DNA of 26,146 nucleotides from a virus, in the IMG/VR virus record IMGVR_UViG_3300030329_002620, positions 1 to 26,146 of that record. The stretch is one strand, 5' to 3'. Shown in pieces: positions 4,132 to 26,146 of the stretch; position 1 is the stretch's first letter, and every line of letters starts with the position of its first letter. The position numbers and the translations under genes were made by a program. The notes beneath the pieces were generated by a model. The model made no database searches. It had not been told where the DNA came from and worked only from the letters and a program-made list of their open reading frames with translations.

Positions 4132-5238
4132 TTATTCGTTACAGGCGATTTGGACTCATTTATGTTCACTCTAGTTCGCTAAACTAAAGCCGTCTTTTCA
4201 GACCGCTATCTGTCGCCAGATAGATCAGACTATATCATCAACCACTTGGGTTGCTCTGCGCTTCGGATCGCTTGATCCTACTCCTAAAAAGGATAGTCGT
4301 TGCACGTTCCCATAATTGGGCTTCGCTCAGGATTATCTACTTGAGACTTCCCCTGAGTTCACAGAGTTTTCAAATTATATTACTATAATAGGCTGCTATT
4401 AATTAACAGAAGTTTCCTGCATTCTAGTCGCACCAAATGATGAACAATAATAAACTTGCGTAGCATATGATTTATCGCTTCGCTCATCTATTTTTGCCGT
4501 TGGCTCTTTACCGATAGCCAACTTACAGCCTTCTTGCGCCCAAGCGTAACAAAGCCTGCTTGTACCATCGTCCGTTAGGCGATTGGAACGAATGAACTTA
4601 AAGCCCATAAACGTATCAATATCACCTTGAACAAGAGCTTTTACAGTATTGTAATCTGCACTTGTAACGGTTGATAGATTAAGCAAGTCCTCGATTTGCT
4701 CTGGGGATACAACCATGTATCGTGGAATAGACGGATCAGTATCCGCTTCATCCAAAATTTTCTTGGCTGAAATCATCTTTGCAAGTGTTAGCCCTGCACT
4801 GCCATGCACGATCTTTTGTGCTGATGGTAAAGCTGTAGATGTAGAACCAGTTGTTCCTGTCTTGGCTGTTCCACCAAGAGCAGTAATAATGGCATCATCC
4901 ATTGCCCGACCAATCGCCGCCGCAGCAGCCCTGGCATAAGTTGATGTTGGATCAATTAGTAAGCGCAACTTATCCTGATCATCAATCAAGTCCGCGTACT
5001 CATAATCGGTTAGAGTGACCATGCGTCTAGCATGGGGTGTGTCCATCAATGGGGTATCCCCATGTCTGGTCGTTCTGGCTTGAGCAGCAGCACTGCCGAC
5101 CTGCTCAAAAAATGCCTTGTCACCATTTACTGTCTCTGTATCAACGGCATCACGCAAAAGGGAACCCATTTGCTGTGATAGCATTTGTACATTGGCAGAA
5201 TACTGATTGACAAAGGCGGTGGTGATTTGTGTACTCAA
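4132..5238 (-). CDS. Major capsid protein, interrupted by a group I intron (exons 5238-4406 and 4156-4132)
   Basis: Exon 1 is 833 nt (5238-4406) and exon 2 is 25 nt (4156-4132). Together they make 858 nt, exactly 286 codons, for a 285-residue protein. The start is TTG at 5238 with a near-perfect Shine-Dalgarno AGGAGGT five bases upstream. The sequence looks like a HK97-fold phage capsid protein: MSTQITTAFVNQYSANVQML, then a polar N-arm, YEYADLIDDQDK, Ala-rich helices and FGATRMQE near the end. Unspliced message stops at 4399 after ETSVN. Splicing replaces VN with VVQIACNE and a TAA next to the Shine-Dalgarno of the following gene. A tail of that kind (VV-I-C after the GATRxxE motif) is what I expect at the C-terminus of this capsid type. 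The scaffold gene lies upstream. Confidence 0.85.
4157..4405 (-). ncRNA. Group I intron (subgroup IA2-like), 249 nt, no internal ORF
   Basis: Read on the minus strand, all core helices are present. P1 pairs exon CTGT and intron TA with TAGCAG, placing a U-G pair at the splice site. P3 is CTCTG (4366-4362) with CAGAG (4258-4254). P4 is CTCAGG with CCTGAG. P7 is GACTAT (4298-4293) with ATAGTC (4233-4228). P7.1 is TCCT-TTTT-AGGA and P7.2 is GGATC-AAGC-GATCC. P8 is CAACC-CAAGT-GGTTG. P9 is CTATCTG-GCGA-CAGATAG, and a further P9 hairpin is followed by the terminal omega G at 4157. The motifs GCAACGACTATCC and GATATAGTCTG closely follow the phage T4 td intron, as do both ends (T|TAATT... and ...GAACATAAATG|). 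Removal fuses the exons in frame. Confidence 0.93.
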
Positions 5239-16906: not shown

Positions 16907-16943
16907 ATCCCTGTAAGACAAATCAGTTTTGCAGGGATTTTTT
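16907..16943 (+). promoter_or_regulatory. Attenuator-like hairpin that contains the ribosome binding site
   Basis: ATCCCTG (16907) pairs with CAGGGAT (16932-16938), with an 18-nt loop, and T6 follows directly before ATG 16944. The only Shine-Dalgarno-like bases (AGGGA) lie in the 3' arm. The structure could both terminate transcription and hide the start of the nuclease gene. It lies 27 bases after the -10 box. Confidence 0.65.
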
Positions 16944-17942
16944 ATGAGCTTAAAAGACATACCACTCGCACCAGCATGGGCAACACGCTTTCACTACTAT
17001 CATCATAGTAATGCCAGCAAAGACTTGTCTAAGGTGTTCATGGATAAGGTCTTTATTCGCCCATTAATTGAAGCCGCCTGGAATGTGATCCGTTCTAAGG
17101 AGTCTACAGCAGAGCAAAAAGAACAGGCTTTCGCTTTACTGGATATTTTAGATCAAAAGCGTAATGGAAGCCAATCGGCTGTGATGCTTGCTGGTATTCT
17201 AGCCCAAATTGCGGCTAATCGTGTCCTTCTCGAAAATTGGCCTCTTGTAAAGGCCATAGAGGAGGCAATCGAGGCTTTTGAATCATATACCCCCCGAACA
17301 TGGGATGGGGGCGTAGACGAGGCTAGAAAGGCCGTATGTAAGGACGAGCTACCTAGCATTATTGAGAATGCTGTTAAAGGTATTCAAGAGACACTTTCAC
17401 AGGAAAACCGCATATTTGGAGAGCGAGAATTGTTTGCCAAGATTCCTGGCCTGGAAATTCCCTACCTAACGTATCCAGATTATAATCTTTTTGCTGATTT
17501 AAAAACTAAATGGTCAAAACCAGCAGAAACCAAATCAGGCGTGAGGGCCGCTTCGCTCCCCAAAAGCCTCAATGGGATTTATGACCTTAGAAATGTTTTC
17601 CAAGTTTGTGGTTTCTACAAGCTGTCAGGGAGACTGCCTTCCCTACTCTATGTGAATAAAAGTGATTATCGCATTTTAAATGCCAATAACTGCTATCATC
17701 TTTCAAAAGAATATCTTGATGAAATGTCACAAATTATCATTGAGAAGCTCCAAAGCGTAGAATTTAAACTCCGTGCAGCAAAGGATCGCTATGATCTGAT
17801 CCGCATGGAGCCACCAGATTTTCAATCGATAGATTGGAAAGAACCGCCAGTGTATTTGGACTATATCAAAAAAATAAAAAACGATGCACTGGCTGACAAT
17901 ATTAAATTGCAAAAAGTCATGGAGGAAATGAATGCAACTTAA
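16944..17942 (+). CDS. PD-(D/E)XK (RecB-like) exonuclease candidate
   Basis: 332 residues from ATG 16944 (TTG 16929 in frame is upstream inside the hairpin). The C-terminal half has TYPDYNLFADLKTKW: Asp 179 and Asp 185-Leu-Lys 187 form the PD-(D/E)XK core. A helical part follows (NVFQVCGFYKL), with the usual Q before a hydrophobic helix as in RecB/Cas4-type nucleases. The N-terminal half is helical. Next to a probable annealing protein it would be the exonuclease of a phage recombination pair. I infer this from motif and neighbours. Confidence 0.72.
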   Translation: MSLKDIPLAPAWATRFHYYHHSNASKDLSKVFMDKVFIRPLIEAAWNVIRSKESTAEQKEQAFALLDILDQKRNGSQSAVMLAGILAQIAANRVLLENWPLVKAIEEAIEAFESYTPRTWDGGVDEARKAVCKDELPSIIENAVKGIQETLSQENRIFGERELFAKIPGLEIPYLTYPDYNLFADLKTKWSKPAETKSGVRAASLPKSLNGIYDLRNVFQVCGFYKLSGRLPSLLYVNKSDYRILNANNCYHLSKEYLDEMSQIIIEKLQSVEFKLRAAKDRYDLIRMEPPDFQSIDWKEPPVYLDYIKKIKNDALADNIKLQKVMEEMNAT

Positions 17943-18288
17943 TTTAGAACTAAGTAAATCACTTCGCAAAAATGCGAGTGATACAGAGCAGTTAGCTTAT
18001 AAAAAAATTATGAGTTACCTGGCTAAAGAGCGTGGTTTGCACCAGAAGATTTTAACAGCGGTATCCAATGCAACCCACACCCCACAACTCCAAGGTCTTA
18101 CAGGCCATGAAGTCTGCGAAACACTAGGTCATGATGTGTTTACAATCAAGCCCAGAATTACAGAGCTTTACAACGCAGGCGCATTACAGAAAACAAAGCT
18201 CCGGCGAAAGAATAGTCGGGGGAATAGTGAAACCGTGTGGGGCATTACGCCTATCGGTGAATCGACTCTGGAGAAAAAGGATGGCTAA
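17932..18288 (+). CDS. Winged-helix DNA-binding protein
   Basis: 118 residues. ATG 17932 lies within the end of the nuclease gene (11-bp overlap). The C-terminal two thirds fit a winged helix: GLTGHEVCETLGHDVFTIKP, RITELYNAGAL, then a basic wing KLRRKNSRGNSETVWGITPIG. This arrangement is frequent in small phage proteins of recombination/replication operons. It may load partner proteins or act on the operon. No enzymatic motif. Confidence 0.65.
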   Translation: MQLNLELSKSLRKNASDTEQLAYKKIMSYLAKERGLHQKILTAVSNATHTPQLQGLTGHEVCETLGHDVFTIKPRITELYNAGALQKTKLRRKNSRGNSETVWGITPIGESTLEKKDG

Positions 18289-19009
18289 AAGGCAAATACC
18301 AGAAAAGCTATTAGCTATTTTAAAAGATATTGGCTTATCAGAACGAGAGTCGATATGGGATTGTCATGGCACACCTGTTGTGTTGCACAAAGCTTTAGAG
18401 AAAATAGCTTCCTTTAAAAAGATTACATTTAACGAGCCAACGATCATTCATTCTGATCCAAAGGAAAAAACATGCATACTCAATGTATCAGGCTCCATTG
18501 GTGATCGTTCTGAATGGAGTATTGGTGAAGCTACGCCTTATAATAATAAGAATGCTTACCCTTACGCGATGGCTGAAAAAAGAGCCAAGGATAGGGTTAT
18601 TCTAAAGCTTATTGATGTTGCAGGGGATGTTTATTCTGAGGAAGAAGCTGATGATTTTAAAGCTAGTCGGCCTCATAAGCCACCAAACCAGGAAATGAAA
18701 GACATTACGCCTAAACCTGATGAGGGCATTGAGGAATATAACAAAGTCATTGAATCAACAGCCCCTAAAGCGGAAGTCCCAGAATTAGAGGCAATCCCTG
18801 ATGTAATGGACGAAAATAACCACATGGAAATTTTTGGACAAATATCTCAGGAGCTTCAAAGAGTCGAAAGCAATCCGCAATTATCTAAATTTGCAAGCCG
18901 ATGGATGCCTATTCTTGAAAAACTCAATGAAAAAGAAGGCAAAAACGTGCAGCACATTATGAGCACAATGGATTACAAACTTAAAAACTTTAAAGAAAGG
19001 AACTTTTAA
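18281..19009 (+). CDS. Putative ssDNA-annealing/recombination protein
   Basis: 242 residues. ATG 18281 overlaps the preceding stop; the longer frame from 18131 is a shadow of the winged-helix gene. The core (about 20-130) has SIWDCHGTPVVLHKALEKIA, WSIGEATPYNNKNAYPYAMA and EKRAKDRVILKLIDVAG, then SEEEADDF. The GEA...YPYAMAEKRA...L pattern recalls single-strand annealing proteins of the ERF/Rad52-like kind, where a GxA...YAxRRALxxLLG motif is found. The C-terminus is acidic and low complexity until a final helix. Nuclease neighbour supports this. Exact family uncertain. Confidence 0.6.
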   Translation: MAKRQIPEKLLAILKDIGLSERESIWDCHGTPVVLHKALEKIASFKKITFNEPTIIHSDPKEKTCILNVSGSIGDRSEWSIGEATPYNNKNAYPYAMAEKRAKDRVILKLIDVAGDVYSEEEADDFKASRPHKPPNQEMKDITPKPDEGIEEYNKVIESTAPKAEVPELEAIPDVMDENNHMEIFGQISQELQRVESNPQLSKFASRWMPILEKLNEKEGKNVQHIMSTMDYKLKNFKERNF

Positions 19010-19326
19010 TGCCTAGTAGAAACAAACCACAATTAGGAAATGGGAACATACAATCGGATAACAAAAAACTTGTTGCCTCCGCATGGTTCAATTCAATTAA
19101 AAGAGAGAATGCTGAAATAGCAATGCCTATCATTGTACGGCTTCACAAAATGATGCTTGAGCACAACATCACTGTCAGCGTGAGATTAAGCGATACCAAC
19201 CATAGCGATAGCTATACGGATCATAGACTGGTCGCTAACTTTAATCTTTTCCCTAATAAATTAGCTGAAGAAGATGATGTTAAAGTTGAAGAGGATAAAT
19301 TCGATGCAAACAGATTTAACGCATAA
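19009..19326 (+). CDS. Phage protein of unknown function
   Basis: 105 residues. ATG 19009 overlaps the preceding TAA (TAATG). The protein has a polar start, a helical middle (AEIAMPIIVRLHKMMLEHNI), then short beta-like segments (VSVRLSD, HRLVANFNLF) and an acidic tail. No motif recognised. It is in the middle of the recombination operon, so a role as a nucleic-acid or partner-binding accessory is plausible only by location. Confidence 0.6.
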   Translation: MPSRNKPQLGNGNIQSDNKKLVASAWFNSIKRENAEIAMPIIVRLHKMMLEHNITVSVRLSDTNHSDSYTDHRLVANFNLFPNKLAEEDDVKVEEDKFDANRFNA

Positions 19327-19555
19327 AAATCTTCTTGATGCAAAAGAAGTGTGTTTGAAATTATGGGGTAGCACCGATGAAAAATTCTACAAAAGGACAA
19401 TCAGAATTATCAAATCTGGACAGATTCCAAGCGTTTGTGATGGGAGAAAACGATACGTCAAAGCCGTTGATCTTGAGCAATTCTTACGAACTGACCGTAG
19501 GGATTACTCCAGGGAGGATGACAATTCTCATGTTTGGAAAAGCAATTATTCGTGA
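19304..19555 (+). CDS. Excisionase-like (AlpA/HTH_17-type) DNA-binding protein
   Basis: 83 residues from ATG 19304, with GAGG upstream; it overlaps the preceding gene by 23 bases. The sequence LLDAKEVCLKLWGSTDEKFY then IIKSGQIPSVCDGRKRYVKAVDLEQFL is the pattern of MerR-like winged helices used by excisionases and AlpA. These bend DNA at attachment sites and turn integrase toward excision. As the phage has an integrase, this is the best Xis candidate in the window. A simple regulator is the alternative. Confidence 0.72.
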   Translation: MQTDLTHKNLLDAKEVCLKLWGSTDEKFYKRTIRIIKSGQIPSVCDGRKRYVKAVDLEQFLRTDRRDYSREDDNSHVWKSNYS

Positions 19556-19631
19556 GCTTGACGAAAAGGAGCTTCTTTGGATTTCACAGAAAGCCTTGGA
19601 AGCTGCAAGAGAAATGATGGAAAGCAAATGA
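19377..19631 (+). CDS. Small overlapping protein, start uncertain
   Basis: The frame ends at TGA 19631, which overlaps the ATG of the next gene (ATGA); this speaks for translation. ATG 19377 would give 84 residues, but 179 bases overlap the excisionase-like gene in another frame. ATGs at 19440, 19518 and 19530 are alternatives, and AGGGAGG stands at about 19511-19517. The certain part is the C-terminus, ILMFGKAIIRELDEKELLWI and SQKALEAAREMMESK, which is helical. No family recognised. Confidence 0.45.
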   Translation: MKNSTKGQSELSNLDRFQAFVMGENDTSKPLILSNSYELTVGITPGRMTILMFGKAIIRELDEKELLWISQKALEAAREMMESK

Positions 19632-19846
19632 GTAACGGCAAAAAACCATGCGTGTTTTGTGCGGAACTGTTTACCTACACTTCGCACCAACAAAAGTATT
19701 GCTCACTTAAATGCCGTTACACATACCACGACCAACGGAAAAAGAGCAGAAAAAGCAATACAGCTATTGGCATTGCACGACCAAAGATGCCAATAACACT
19801 GCCTTACATACCAGAAAGGCTTATTGAGAGAGAAGAAAATCATTAA
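19628..19846 (+). CDS. Zinc-finger protein with basic tail
   Basis: 72 residues from ATG 19628 (ATGA coupling). CVFC near the N-terminus and CSLKC about 20 residues later (QQKYCSLKCRYTYHDQRKK) form a four-Cys zinc knuckle of the treble-clef type, followed by many Lys/Arg. Such domains in phages usually bind DNA or RNA. The rest is likely flexible. It sits between an excisionase-like gene and the 19860 gene in the early operon. Confidence 0.65.
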   Translation: MSNGKKPCVFCAELFTYTSHQQKYCSLKCRYTYHDQRKKSRKSNTAIGIARPKMPITLPYIPERLIEREENH

Positions 19847-19859
19847 AAGGAGAGAAAAA

Positions 19860-20615
19860 ATGATTAAAAAAACTACAAATACAAATCTAACGATTGATGC
19901 TTTAAAGCAGGGGAGAATTACCTTGCGAATGATTGGGAACACCCCGATTATATTTAACCGCATGGCTGAAAAAGCCAAAAGGGATTTGCTTATTGGGGCT
20001 GGCCGTAAAACCGCTGCACAAAAAAAAGATATAAAGCATAATCCTGAAATGGAGTTTAGATCATCAATACATAAAATGGCTGACGGTGATACTTTATTAG
20101 GATTCCCAGCGGCTGGTGTAAAAGGTGCTATGGCAACGGCTGCACTTGAAACCACTGGGGTAAACAAAACATCTGTTAATCGTTTGATTTTTTTACCTCA
20201 ACAGAAAGTACCTATTTGGGGTACGCCAAAACTGTATATGGATGTTGTGAGGTCTAGCGACATGAACAAAACCCCTGATATTAGAACCAGAGCTATTATC
20301 AATGAGTGGTGTGCAGAAGTTGACATTGCATTTGTTACTCCAACACTTTCACAGCATTCTATTGTAGCTCTGTTGCAAAATGCAGGGATGATTTGCGGTA
20401 TTGGCGATAACAGACAAGAAAAAGGTAAAGGAAACTTTGGATCTTGGTTTGTTGATTTTGAAGGTAATGACCAATTCAAAGATGTGTGGGAAGCTAGAAC
20501 TAAAATTGCTAGAAAAGCTCAAGAAAAAGCTATGAAAGATATCATTATAAATGATGAAGAAACCCAAGAGCTTTATGATTTTTACAAAGAAGAAGTTATT
20601 AGGAGAGCAGCATAA
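19860..20615 (+). CDS. Conserved phage protein with RAMP-like sequence features
   Basis: 251 residues. ATG 19860 has AAAGGAGA upstream. The start (GRITLRMIGNTPIIFNRMAE), LLGFPAAGVKGAMATAA (79-95) and a Gly-rich stretch GMICGIGDNRQEKGKGNFG (176-194) form a pattern I recognise from a large family of hypothetical phage proteins. TPIxxNR at the start, PAxxxKGA in the middle and a late G-rich loop recall RAMP/Cas7-type RNA-binding proteins. The resemblance is only by eye. The gene is coupled to the next one (TAATG), and the pair often travels together. Confidence 0.6.
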   Translation: MIKKTTNTNLTIDALKQGRITLRMIGNTPIIFNRMAEKAKRDLLIGAGRKTAAQKKDIKHNPEMEFRSSIHKMADGDTLLGFPAAGVKGAMATAALETTGVNKTSVNRLIFLPQQKVPIWGTPKLYMDVVRSSDMNKTPDIRTRAIINEWCAEVDIAFVTPTLSQHSIVALLQNAGMICGIGDNRQEKGKGNFGSWFVDFEGNDQFKDVWEARTKIARKAQEKAMKDIIINDEETQELYDFYKEEVIRRAA

Positions 20616-21127
20616 TGTCACTTCGTTTTACAAAACAAGATAGACAAAATATCATCAATGATTACCTCAATGAAACAGGGCGGAACAGTTATGTTCCGTC
20701 CGAATTTATCGATTGGTTGCAAGATAATCCAAGCCATAAACTTTATGATTACATTTTTAGTGATTCTGAAGAAGAAGCTGCATATAAATATAGAGTTCAT
20801 TTAGCAAGACAATTTGCATCTGGTCTTAAATTAACGATTGAAGTATCTAAAATGCCTATGCCCTCTAAGATCGAAAATTTAAAGGTTGTTGATGTGCCGT
20901 CACTTATTTCGCCTATCAATAATAGAGCCAATGGTGGTGGGTATGTACCTGTAGATGTTCAAGATACTGACACAATGTCTGAACTTGTATTGCAAGCTCA
21001 TCAAGCTTTGAAGTCTTGGAAGGGTAGATATGCTGGAACTTGTGAATTGTCAGGCATAGATATCAGTGCGATAGAAAGCATACTAGAAGAATTAAAAGCT
21101 AAAACAGTTAAGGAAGAAGCAGCGTAA
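20615..21127 (+). CDS. Conserved partner protein of the 19860 gene
   Basis: 170 residues from ATG 20615 (TAATG). It has FIDWLQDNPSHKLYDYIF, EEAAYKYRVHLARQFASGLK, a flexible middle with IENLKVVDVPSLISPINNRA, and helical ends. I have seen the WLxxNPxHxLYD...YRxxxARxFxxGL pattern beside the preceding family in other phages. Its function is unknown. It is the last gene of the rightward operon; the pentamer array starts at the first base after its stop codon. Confidence 0.65.
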   Translation: MSLRFTKQDRQNIINDYLNETGRNSYVPSEFIDWLQDNPSHKLYDYIFSDSEEEAAYKYRVHLARQFASGLKLTIEVSKMPMPSKIENLKVVDVPSLISPINNRANGGGYVPVDVQDTDTMSELVLQAHQALKSWKGRYAGTCELSGIDISAIESILEELKAKTVKEEAA

Positions 21128-21762
21128 GTCGGTTGAGTTGGGTCTTGTTTTGTTTGGTTGCGTAGAGTTGAGTTCAGTTCTGTTGAGTTAAGTCGGTTAT
21201 GTTCCGTTACGTTCGGTTGCGTTGTGTTTCGTTGAGTTCCGTTGAGTTCTGGCGGTTACGTTTTGTTGGGGTTCGTTACGTTACTGTAAGTTCTGTTTGG
21301 TTTGGGTTTGTTAAGTTACGTTGGGTTTCGTTTAGGCGGTTGGGTTATGTTCAGTTGCGTTATGTTCGGTTCAGTTACGTTCAGTTGCGTTTCGTTAAGT
21401 TTAGGCGGTTGGGTTTGGTTACGTTCAGTTTCGTTAAGTTATGTTGCGTTAAGTTCAGTTATGTTAAGTCGGTTTAGTTAGTTTCCGTCAAGTTCAGTTC
21501 CGTTGCGTTCCGTTGCGTTCCGTTAAGTCGGTTAAGTTGTGTTATGTAAAGTTACGTTCAGTTTGGTTGCGTTATGTCGGTTCTGTTAGGTTCAGTTACG
21601 TTTTGTTGCGTTACGTTAAGTTCTGTTCTGTTCTGTTGAGTCGGTTACGTTATGTCGAGTTGGGTTCTGTTATGCTTTGATGGGGAATGTTAAGTCGGTT
21701 GGGTTGGGTTAAGTTTGGTTCGGTTATGGTCAGTTGGGTTGGGTTCCGTTAGGGTAAGTTAA
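21128..21762 (+). repeat. Hierarchical GTTNN pentamer array, 10 blocks, about 635 bp
   Basis: The array is built from 119 successive 5-mers, of which 105 are exactly GTTNN. It is divided into ten blocks, each opened by one 4-mer, GTCG or GGCG. Blocks start at 21128, 21192, 21251, 21335, 21404, 21468, 21527, 21576, 21640 and 21694. The spacings 64, 59, 84, 69, 64, 59, 49, 64 and 54 are all 5n+4, so the pentamer phase is kept without a single further indel. The NN positions use all 16 dinucleotides. The array contains stops in every frame and does not code. It lies in the 3' untranslated part of the early operon, before a terminator. Function unknown. Confidence 0.95.
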
Positions 21763-21763
21763 G

Positions 21764-21790
21764 AAAGGGCGCATAAAGCGCCCCTTTTTT
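21764..21790 (+). terminator. Rho-independent terminator after the pentamer array
   Basis: GGGCGC (21767-21772), loop ATAAA, GCGCCC (21778-21783), then C and T6. The 5' side is preceded by AAA, so the stem may lengthen with one bulge. It ends the rightward operon just before the integrase stop codon (21789). On the minus strand the T tract is poor. Confidence 0.88.
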
Positions 21791-22970
21791 ATGCCTTCTT
21801 CCGATAATTATTTACATCAAAGACTTCTGCTTTTTTCTCTTTGAAATGGGTGCGATCCGCACCAGTGTCTATCTTCTTAACATAAACGCTATCTGTTATT
21901 TTAATGCTGCTATGCCCCATTTGATCGGTGGTATAACGCTCATCAAAGTTCATGCGTGTGATAGATGCAAAGTAATTACGCATGGCTTTCCAGGTAATTC
22001 TTGGCACACCAGCTTTTTGTATTGCCTTTTCTATTTCACGTTGCATCTTACTATGGCTACACCAAGGGTTTATCGACCCCTCATTTTTGCTAGGCCAAAT
22101 GTAACAATCATCTTTTGTCATGCTTGGATCACAGGATAGCTTATACTTTTTAAGCTCCAGCAAGAGCACAGGATCAATGTCCAGCCCCCTATTCCCAGCC
22201 TCAGTCTTAGGCTCAGGCTTTACATATTCTACTGTGCCTTCTGTAATGTCTTTAAGGGCTATTGTTTTGTTGACGACACATAACTGTTCATCAAAGTTAA
22301 TATCGCCCCATTGTAGCGCCCTCTGCTCTCCCTGACGCATACCCATTCGTGCAGCAAACATCAAAGCTAATGACCATTCAGGATCAGCCGCATCAATGAT
22401 TTTCTGGATATTTTCTGGATGAATATGATCGCCTGTAATCTTTGGCTTGCTTTCTTTCTGCCCAATAATATCCTGGGAAACATGTATATTTCTACATGGG
22501 TTACTTTCCCTGCACTCAATAGTAACAGCACGATCAAGCATAATACTAAAATATCGAAAATAACTTCTTGCTGTTTTGCTTGTGCGATTATGTGTAAGGC
22601 TTGGAAAAATCTGCGTAATAAGATGAGAAGCTTTTAAATCTTTTACAAGCACATCACGCAATGGCTTGTATAGGTTCCTCTTATTAAGCGACACGGCTGG
22701 TATGTCTAAAATGGCATTGATAGCTCTTAATACATTTCGCCTATCTTTTTTCACAGAAGATTCATAGTGATTGTATAAATCGCCAAATGTGTATTCATCT
22801 GTCTCTACGAATACTCTGCTTTGTTGCGATTCTAATCTTTCCTTTTCAGCTAAAGCTTCTTCAATTGTTTTTTTAAAAATACGCTTTCTTTTATTATATT
22901 GATTTCTATATATTAATTGATACTGGCCTTTGTTAGCACCAGTACCGACAAGATTTATTCTTATTTCCAT
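21789..22970 (-). CDS. int: Tyrosine-recombinase integrase
   Basis: 393 residues from ATG 22970, chosen because GGAGAAG precedes it at normal spacing; TTG 23006 upstream lies inside the operator. N-terminal arm-binding domain (about 1-60), SAM-like core-binding domain (about 61-175), catalytic domain after 180. Catalytic residues: Arg 212 (GMRQGE), Lys 255 (PKTEAG), Arg 331 in ITWKAMR, His 353 (QMGHSS) and Tyr 363 (SVYVK). The first His of the usual HxxR box is Trp 327, a departure from consensus. It integrates the phage at a tRNA gene, as attP shows. Confidence 0.95.
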   Translation of the reverse strand: MEIRINLVGTGANKGQYQLIYRNQYNKRKRIFKKTIEEALAEKERLESQQSRVFVETDEYTFGDLYNHYESSVKKDRRNVLRAINAILDIPAVSLNKRNLYKPLRDVLVKDLKASHLITQIFPSLTHNRTSKTARSYFRYFSIMLDRAVTIECRESNPCRNIHVSQDIIGQKESKPKITGDHIHPENIQKIIDAADPEWSLALMFAARMGMRQGEQRALQWGDINFDEQLCVVNKTIALKDITEGTVEYVKPEPKTEAGNRGLDIDPVLLLELKKYKLSCDPSMTKDDCYIWPSKNEGSINPWCSHSKMQREIEKAIQKAGVPRITWKAMRNYFASITRMNFDERYTTDQMGHSSIKITDSVYVKKIDTGADRTHFKEKKAEVFDVNNYRKKA

Positions 22971-22989
22971 TTTCTTCTCCGCTGTTAAA

Positions 22990-23034
22990 TTGACGTAAGA
23001 CGACAACTATACATCGCGTAAGAAGTAAATTCAA
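22990..23034 (-). promoter_or_regulatory. Integrase promoter with operator at the transcription start
   Basis: Minus strand TTGAAT (23034-23029) - 17 bp - TATAGT (23011-23006). The 17-bp operator-like site (plus strand TTGACGTAAGACGACAA, 22990-23006; 14 of 17 matches to the best site) follows the -10 directly and would cover the start point. It runs into the leader GTCAATTTAACAGCGGAGAA (22994-22975) shared with the 11401 gene. Confidence 0.72.
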
Positions 23035-25381: not shown

Positions 25382-26146
25382 TTAAGATCCTTCCAATTTA
25401 ACGATTCTTGCTTCTAATTCTTGAATGGTCTTGACCAAGAGAGGTACAAGTTTACTATGATCTATAGACTGATGACTTGGTACAGATCGTGTTCCCATTA
25501 CTGCTTCTTTAGTTACATTTCCTTCGCTATCTCTTTCCACTGGCGAAACTTCATACCTCTCGTCACGCATTGCATCTTTTTCTCCTTCAATAGCTTCTGG
25601 AACTATAGAAGAAACTTCATGGGCTAAGAAACCATCCACTAAGGTATTAGTGTCGTCTATTTTCCAATTAAATCGTGCAGGTTTTAACTGCTTCAATCGT
25701 GTTGTAGCATCCCAATCATAAGATATATTTTCTTTTAGGCGATAGTCAGAAGATGTAACAAAACTTGTGGCAGTTGTTGAAGTGTTGATACCCCCAATGT
25801 AAGTTCCATTATGGTAATGAAGATTAACATTTTGTGACCCTGTATCACCACTAGCTCTTGAAAAAGACATTTGAGCAAAACTGTTATCATGTGATATTGC
25901 CATTCCACCACTAGAACTAGTCCAAGCACCAGTACCAAACATCACAGTACCACCATTAAAATAGCTGTCTCCACCAGCCCTAATTTGAACGGTGGTTGTA
26001 TCTACATTTTTGATACGTAATCTTCCTTCATTAACGTCATTTGTAGATAATTCAAAAGTATCTTTACCATCTGTGTTTGGAGAGCAAACAATTCCCCCAT
26101 TTACATCTAATGTATTATTCGGAGAAGTTGTGCCAATACCAACATT
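25382..26146 (-). CDS. Tail fibre, C-terminal part with S74 intramolecular chaperone
   Basis: Open from the window edge to TAA 25382; about 254 residues are visible and the N-terminus lies outside. The visible part starts NVGIGTTSPNNTLDVNGG, a repeat unit typical of beta-helical fibres. Then come Ser/Gly-rich beta segments and SSDYRLKENISYDW, the hallmark of the S74 peptidase/chaperone domain, whose self-cleavage is expected near SSD. The end is a coiled coil (LVKTIQELEARIVKLEGS). The domain trimerises the fibre and then cuts itself off. Fibres of this type bind host receptors. Confidence 0.9.
   Translation of the reverse strand, partial: NVGIGTTSPNNTLDVNGGIVCSPNTDGKDTFELSTNDVNEGRLRIKNVDTTTVQIRAGGDSYFNGGTVMFGTGAWTSSSGGMAISHDNSFAQMSFSRASGDTGSQNVNLHYHNGTYIGGINTSTTATSFVTSSDYRLKENISYDWDATTRLKQLKPARFNWKIDDTNTLVDGFLAHEVSSIVPEAIEGEKDAMRDERYEVSPVERDSEGNVTKEAVMGTRSVPSHQSIDHSKLVPLLVKTIQELEARIVKLEGS

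What the first reader, a model, noticed from the sequence alone, without database searches (positions are those of the whole stretch)
21128..21762. Two-level repeat code: GTTNN pentamers in blocks opened by a G(T/G)CG tetramer
A 635-bp array of 119 pentamers (105 exact GTTNN) is divided into 10 blocks. Each block starts with GTCG or GGCG, and all nine spacings equal 5n+4 (n = 12, 11, 16, 13, 12, 11, 9, 12, 10). No indel breaks the phase. The tetramers are thus part of the design, and block length is variable but pentamer length is not. I know no described phage repeat like this. It lies between the recombination operon and int, begins right after a stop codon and ends at a terminator. Ideas: GT-rich strand favoured by RecA/annealing proteins; polarity signal for replication or packaging; origin; G/U-rich RNA that titrates a protein. 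The 5-bp period is about half a helical turn, so GTT alternates between DNA faces.
Basis: partly seen in the sequence, partly recalled or inferred. Interest (0 to 1): 0.93.

Follow-up and report, generated by a model that had tools for sequence, protein, structure and literature searches.

The report
Phage RNA-guide array with gapped code
The strange GTTNN repeat is a row of about ten guide-RNA units of a recently reported phage system (VIPR, related to CRISPR's RNA-binding proteins), here in a GTT-based, tetramer-divided form whose two-letter gaps spell targets in genes of rival phages.

Summary
It is not a DNA recombination or packaging signal. Two genes upstream on the same strand, window 19860-20615 encodes a RAMP (Cas7/Csm3-like) protein; its family lies beside such arrays in 18 of 21 array loci. 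The only sequence relative in the PDB is 36pp, 'SUSP1 Vipr protein'. A 2026 preprint (PMC13142463) describes VIPR: Vipr plus vrRNAs of 9-16 GGY/NN pentamers whose NN pairs specify DNA with a one-base skip. The window carries the same anatomy with core GTT instead of GGY. Decoding works in its clade: one sibling guide reads TTMRYAHLAPK, matching 11/11 dinucleotides in a tyrosine integrase (116 of 120 pattern hits lie in codon register); another matches 23/24 bases in a terminase gene that was not sought. The window's block 8 reads LRHTFATNLLL, the integrase active-site box. New relative to the preprint's main text: GTT (and GCA) cores, changed repeatedly across Vipr phylogeny, and a 4-nt punctuation instead of tails. 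Its supplement could not be read, so part may already be known.

The parts
19860..20615 (+). vipr: RAMP (Cas7/Csm3-like) protein, 251 aa from the ATG; PHROG 4652 (unknown function)
   Evidence: phrog_4652 E=4e-14; profile of relatives hits PDB 36pp 'SUSP1 Vipr protein' E=1.4e-43, window protein alone E=6.5e-4; AlphaFold model pLDDT 77, pTM 0.73, best PDB fold matches Csm3-type RAMPs, E about 1e-4, modest TM 0.3-0.5
20615..21127 (+). candidate accessory gene (vap), 170 aa, function unknown
   Evidence: adjacent to vipr/array in 8 loci; no Pfam match, weak phrog_15946; model mostly helical, pTM 0.44, no fold match
21128..21762 (+). vrRNA (guide) array, GTT core, 10 tetramer-opened blocks
21128..21191 (+). 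block W1: GTCG + 12 pentamers
21192..21250 (+). block W2: GTCG + 11; partly shared with L094 block 1
21251..21334 (+). block W3: GGCG + 16
21335..21403 (+). block W4: GGCG + 13
   Evidence: no target found
21404..21467 (+). block W5: GGCG + 12; decodes to G[WC]TQSK[IM]AKQ[IM], resembling a helix-turn-helix motif (suggestive only)
   Evidence: no exact target
21468..21526 (+). block W6: GTCG + 11; homologous to L251 block
21527..21575 (+). block W7: GTCG + 9
21576..21639 (+). block W8: GTCG + 12; decodes to LRHTFATNLLL, the tyrosine-recombinase active-site box
21640..21693 (+). block W9: GTCG + 10 (most degenerate)
21694..21762 (+). block W10: GTCG + 13; homologous to L094 block 3
   Evidence: only an out-of-frame chance hit
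21767..21790 (+). intrinsic terminator ending the presumed vipr-vap-array transcript
   Evidence: GGGCGC-ATAAA-GCGCCC then CTTTTTT

Best explanation
The array is the guide-RNA array of a VIPR system. The vipr, candidate vap and array are read on one strand up to the terminator. Each block (about ten GUUNN units after a G[U/G]CG tetramer) is one guide. Vipr, a Cas7-like RAMP, oligomerises along the RNA with one subunit per 5 nt, holding the constant GUU; the free NN pairs base-pair with DNA, skipping one target base per subunit, so a guide reads NNxNNxNN and the skipped base falls on codon wobble positions. Binding represses genes of competing temperate phages (integrase, terminase). The 4-nt tetramer breaks the register and marks where one guide ends and the next begins. 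Shown here: protein family, linkage, grammar, and decoding of sibling guides. Taken from the preprint on other VIPRs: RNP formation and repression. Inferred: transcription, subunit footprint and tetramer role in this phage.
For: Vipr family next to the array in 18 of 21 loci, same strand, within 0-1.4 kb. Profile match to PDB 36pp SUSP1 Vipr, E=1.4e-43; Csm3-type folds top the PDB list. Preprint: vrRNAs are 9-16 repeats of conserved triplet plus NN with a 1-nt skip; the window has 9-16 units per block. Guide L254:6482, not used in any search, matches 23/24 bases in a terminase gene of L356, score 21 against a shuffled-guide maximum of 16 over 7 Mb; 0- and 2-nt skips score 12. Window W8: 2 of 3 distinct pattern hits are in tyrosine recombinases, in register. 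Related guides differ by AG/CG (Arg) and TT/CT (Leu) more than expected, 8 of 50 against 2.
Against: No full-length target was found for any of the window's own ten guides: W4 and W5 none, W10 one out-of-frame chance hit; W8 matches 9 of 12 dinucleotides at best and its local score alone does not exceed shuffles. W8 had only one, 3-mismatch hit in 385 genomes of one bacterial class. The core is GTT, not GGY, and no structured 3' tail separates the blocks. The synonymy count includes non-independent pairs. Transcription was not observed.
Confidence: 0.9

Rival explanations
1. A DNA element (origin, packaging or recombination hotspot) bound on duplex or single strand by a phage protein with a 5-nt footprint, such as an annealing protein.
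For: Strong strand bias and strict period; RecT-type annealing proteins are thought to bind about 5 nt per subunit (own knowledge).
Against: The linked conserved gene is a RAMP, not an annealing protein; the NN positions carry decodable coding-sequence information, unexpected for a scaffold site; arrays sit at varied places in unrelated phages.
Confidence: 0.04
2. An RNA sponge or regulator: a GU-rich transcript that titrates a multimeric RNA-binding protein in the way of TRAP on (G/U)AGNN repeats, with NN merely neutral.
For: 3+2 periodicity resembles TRAP sites (own knowledge); RAMP linkage also fits RNA binding.
Against: NN would then drift freely, but sibling guides hit integrase and terminase genes in codon register and related guides change with an excess of codon-synonymous steps.
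Confidence: 0.04
3. A repeat that codes for a repetitive protein, or a simple pentanucleotide expansion.
For: One 92-aa ORF overlaps it; simple GTTNN repeats are common in bacterial genomes.
Against: 8-22 stops per frame; NN entropy 3.8 bits against 0-1 in simple repeats; tetramers shift the frame; blocks within an array mostly do not share sequence.
Confidence: 0.01

Closest known systems
VIPR, type II (phage SUSP1 and P. fulva prophage; PMC13142463, PDB 36pp)
   Same: RAMP protein of the same family, small adjacent gene, pentamers of conserved triplet plus hypervariable NN, 9-16 units per guide, 1-nt-skip decoding into competitor genes.
   Different: Core GTT rather than GGY; ten guides head to tail divided by a 4-nt G[T/G]CG instead of separate RNAs each with a structured 3' tail; accessory gene not shown to be related.
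VIPR-like loci on Rhodobacterales plasmids (Sulfitobacter NZ_CP136687, Paracoccus NZ_CP040759)
   Same: Vipr 64% and 58% identical to the window's, downstream array with the same GGCG punctuation.
   Different: Core GGY; these nest among GTT-core relatives on the Vipr tree.
CRISPR class 1 effectors (Csm3/Cas7) and crRNA
   Same: RAMP fold; RNA-guided filament logic.
   Different: No CRISPR array, no other cas gene found; gapped rather than contiguous code; one RAMP only.

Membership tests
VIPR | RAMP protein of the Vipr family encoded beside the array | tested here: met
   36pp match E=1.4e-43 by profile, 6.5e-4 alone; Csm3-like fold; linkage 18 of 21
VIPR | vrRNA of alternating conserved triplet and hypervariable NN ('GGY/NN, or a related consensus') | tested here: met
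   GTT/NN, 105 of 119 exact, NN near random; the strict GGY form is not met, but GGY relatives lie inside the same Vipr clade
VIPR | 9-16 pentamers per guide | tested here: met
   blocks of 9-16; 7-18, mode 10, in 15 loci
VIPR | NN pairs match DNA targets with a 1-nt skip | tested here: met
   met for two sibling guides of the same clade; only partly for the window's own block 8
VIPR | accessory vap gene | tested here: inconclusive
   conserved adjacent ORF 20615-21127; could not be compared with vap1-6
VIPR | RNA expressed and bound by Vipr; DNA binding and repression | not testable with these tools
   needs small-RNA sequencing and binding assays
VIPR type II | conserved structured 3' tail after each repeat tract | tested here: not met
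   blocks abut, divided only by a tetramer
CRISPR-Cas | palindromic repeats with contiguous spacers and cas genes | tested here: not met
   no cas-like family match among ten ORFs from 16929-23006; no repeat-spacer structure

The most novel reading that the evidence does not exclude
The core triplet is an exchangeable part of the code (GGY, GTT and GCA in different phages, changed several times on the Vipr tree), and one 4-nt step in an otherwise 5-nt filament replaces tails and processing signals, so that one transcript carries ten guides whose limits are set by a register break that Vipr itself senses.
Probability: 0.4. Interest if true: 0.85.

Novelty: new variant of a known kind. Interest (0 to 1): 0.74.

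Why it matters
It shows that an unexplained phage repeat is readable: guides of this phage group can be decoded to genes of rival phages, so who fights whom can be inferred from sequence. It extends a just-reported RNA-guided DNA recognition system to a new core triplet and a compact multi-guide layout, and gives direct tests of what sets the core specificity and the guide limits.

Tried and rejected
Rfam: only a group I intron elsewhere. No tRNA. Target search within 2 Mb of mostly unrelated loci and within related phage genomes: nothing above shuffled guides. Decoded W10 core: one hit, out of frame, chance. W4: none. W5: none. Guide family L254:6418: two out-of-frame hits. W6-type pattern in eight target-bearing contigs: none. 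W8 in 385 genomes of one class: one 3-mismatch hit. Fold of the candidate vap: no match. TRAP-like and annealing-protein readings were considered and dropped after the RAMP gene was found. The preprint's supplement (fig. S17 consensus, S18 staggered arrays) could not be read, so overlap with its types is open.

Full report
OBSERVATION. The array is exactly as described: 119 pentamers from 21128 to 21762, 105 of them GTTNN, in ten blocks opened by GTCG or GGCG. Positions 1-3 are fixed, positions 4-5 nearly random. Exact 5-base spacings number 84, with at most 14 in 500 shuffles. The same grammar with other contents recurs in independent contigs; 68 of 73 tetramer spacings in 15 loci are 4 modulo 5.

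RELATIVES. The pattern (GTTNN)7GTT found about twenty further viral contigs with high-entropy arrays; the bacterial genome hits that scored in the same analysis were low-entropy simple repeats. An all-against-all comparison of ORFs around 21 array loci showed one family in 18 of them, on the same strand and within 0-1.4 kb upstream: the window's ORF 19860-20615, PHROG 4652, function unknown. Cultured phages with this protein (Mycobacterium, Gordonia, Felix-like Escherichia phages, a cyanophage, Pseudomonas and Vibrio phages) also have period-5 arrays beside it, with cores GGC, GGT or, in the Vibrio phage, GCA.

IDENTITY. A profile of the family has one strong PDB match, 36pp 'SUSP1 Vipr protein', E=1.4e-43. 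The AlphaFold model (pLDDT 77) is closest to Csm3-type CRISPR RAMPs, with modest TM-scores. A 2026 preprint (PMC13142463) reports VIPR: Vipr RAMP proteins with vrRNAs of 9-16 pentamers, GGY alternating with NN; NN pairs specify double-stranded DNA with one skipped base per unit, the skip mostly on codon wobble positions; the reported function is repression of competing phages. Its main text mentions 'a related consensus' and several array layouts whose details are in a supplement I could not read.

DECODING. If the window is a VIPR, NN pairs of a block should read as codon positions 1-2 of a target. The closest relatives (Vipr 83-96% identical) provided the test. Guide L254:6546 reads T T M/I R Y A H L/F A P K. 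Its central eight dinucleotides, with wobbles seen in sibling guides, hit at least 120 viral contigs; 116 of the 120 lie in codon register, in the conserved TMRYAHLAP segment of tyrosine integrases, and one (L361) matches all eleven dinucleotides. A second guide, L254:6482, never used in a search, matched 23 of 24 bases in the terminase gene of L356, one of those contigs: score 21 at 1-nt skip, 12 at 0 and 2, best shuffled guide 16. Read on the gene's strand (worked out by hand) it gives L-A-M-A-V-Q-Y-W-V-E-Q-M, with the skipped bases at wobble positions. The gene is called terminase from its sequence (DDRLDALAMAVQYW motif; own knowledge), not from a family search.

For the window itself, block 8 reads L R H T F A T N/K L L L, the active-site box of tyrosine recombinases. 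Its nine-dinucleotide pattern found three distinct sequences, two of them recombinases in codon register. The phage's own genome matches at most 14 of 22 bases, so it would not target itself. No full-length target was found for any window guide, which is unsurprising for a phage of unknown host. Vipr relatives at 58-64% on Rhodobacterales plasmids and portal similarity to pelagiphages point to an alphaproteobacterial host, by inference.

Homologous guides in related phages differ in a telling way: 8 of 50 single-base dinucleotide differences are AG/CG or TT/CT, the only single first-two-base changes that keep an amino acid (Arg, Leu), against 2 expected. Pairs are not fully independent, so this is supporting evidence.

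WHAT IS NEW. The core here is GTT. On a Vipr tree GTT and GGY are not single clades: at least three changes are forced by well-supported branches, and the GGY plasmid loci sit among GTT relatives; some branches are long and the GTT set was found by searching for GTT. The guides abut, divided by a tetramer: G[T/G]CG in this clade, the plasmids included, and GGCA in actinophage and cyanophage arrays. The tetramer as guide boundary is inferred: block sizes match the reported guide sizes, and both sibling matches fill their blocks (11/11, 11/12 dinucleotides).

VERDICT. A VIPR guide array with a variant core and compact punctuation. Family membership is well supported; mechanism in this phage rests on homology plus decoding, not on experiment.

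Noticed in passing
4206-4415, minus strand: A compact group I intron (Rfam RF00028, 96 bits) without an ORF lies right at the 3' end of the likely major capsid gene; whether it splits that gene was not settled.
   Followed up: partly
L419:2350-3300: Vibrio phage 1.266.O has a distant Vipr relative flanked by arrays whose core looks like GCANN.
   Followed up: partly
L055:13280-13690, L037:1800-3320, L018:1287-1887: Other GTT arrays use different 9-base punctuation: G[T/C]ATTNTAA and GGCNGATNN.
   Followed up: no
21128-21762 and related arrays: The last dinucleotide of a block is AA in 39 of 80 blocks, so the final unit may be part of the boundary rather than the guide.
   Followed up: partly
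L356 (contig of 28 kb): A temperate phage contig carries matches to two different guides of the same sibling system, in its integrase (partial match) and terminase genes.
   Followed up: yes
L011, L058, L083: Three loci with GTT arrays showed no Vipr-family ORF in the fetched stretch; not examined further.
   Followed up: no
25382-26146, minus strand: The contig ends inside a tail-fibre-like gene with a C-terminal chaperone-like segment (from sequence appearance only).
   Followed up: no
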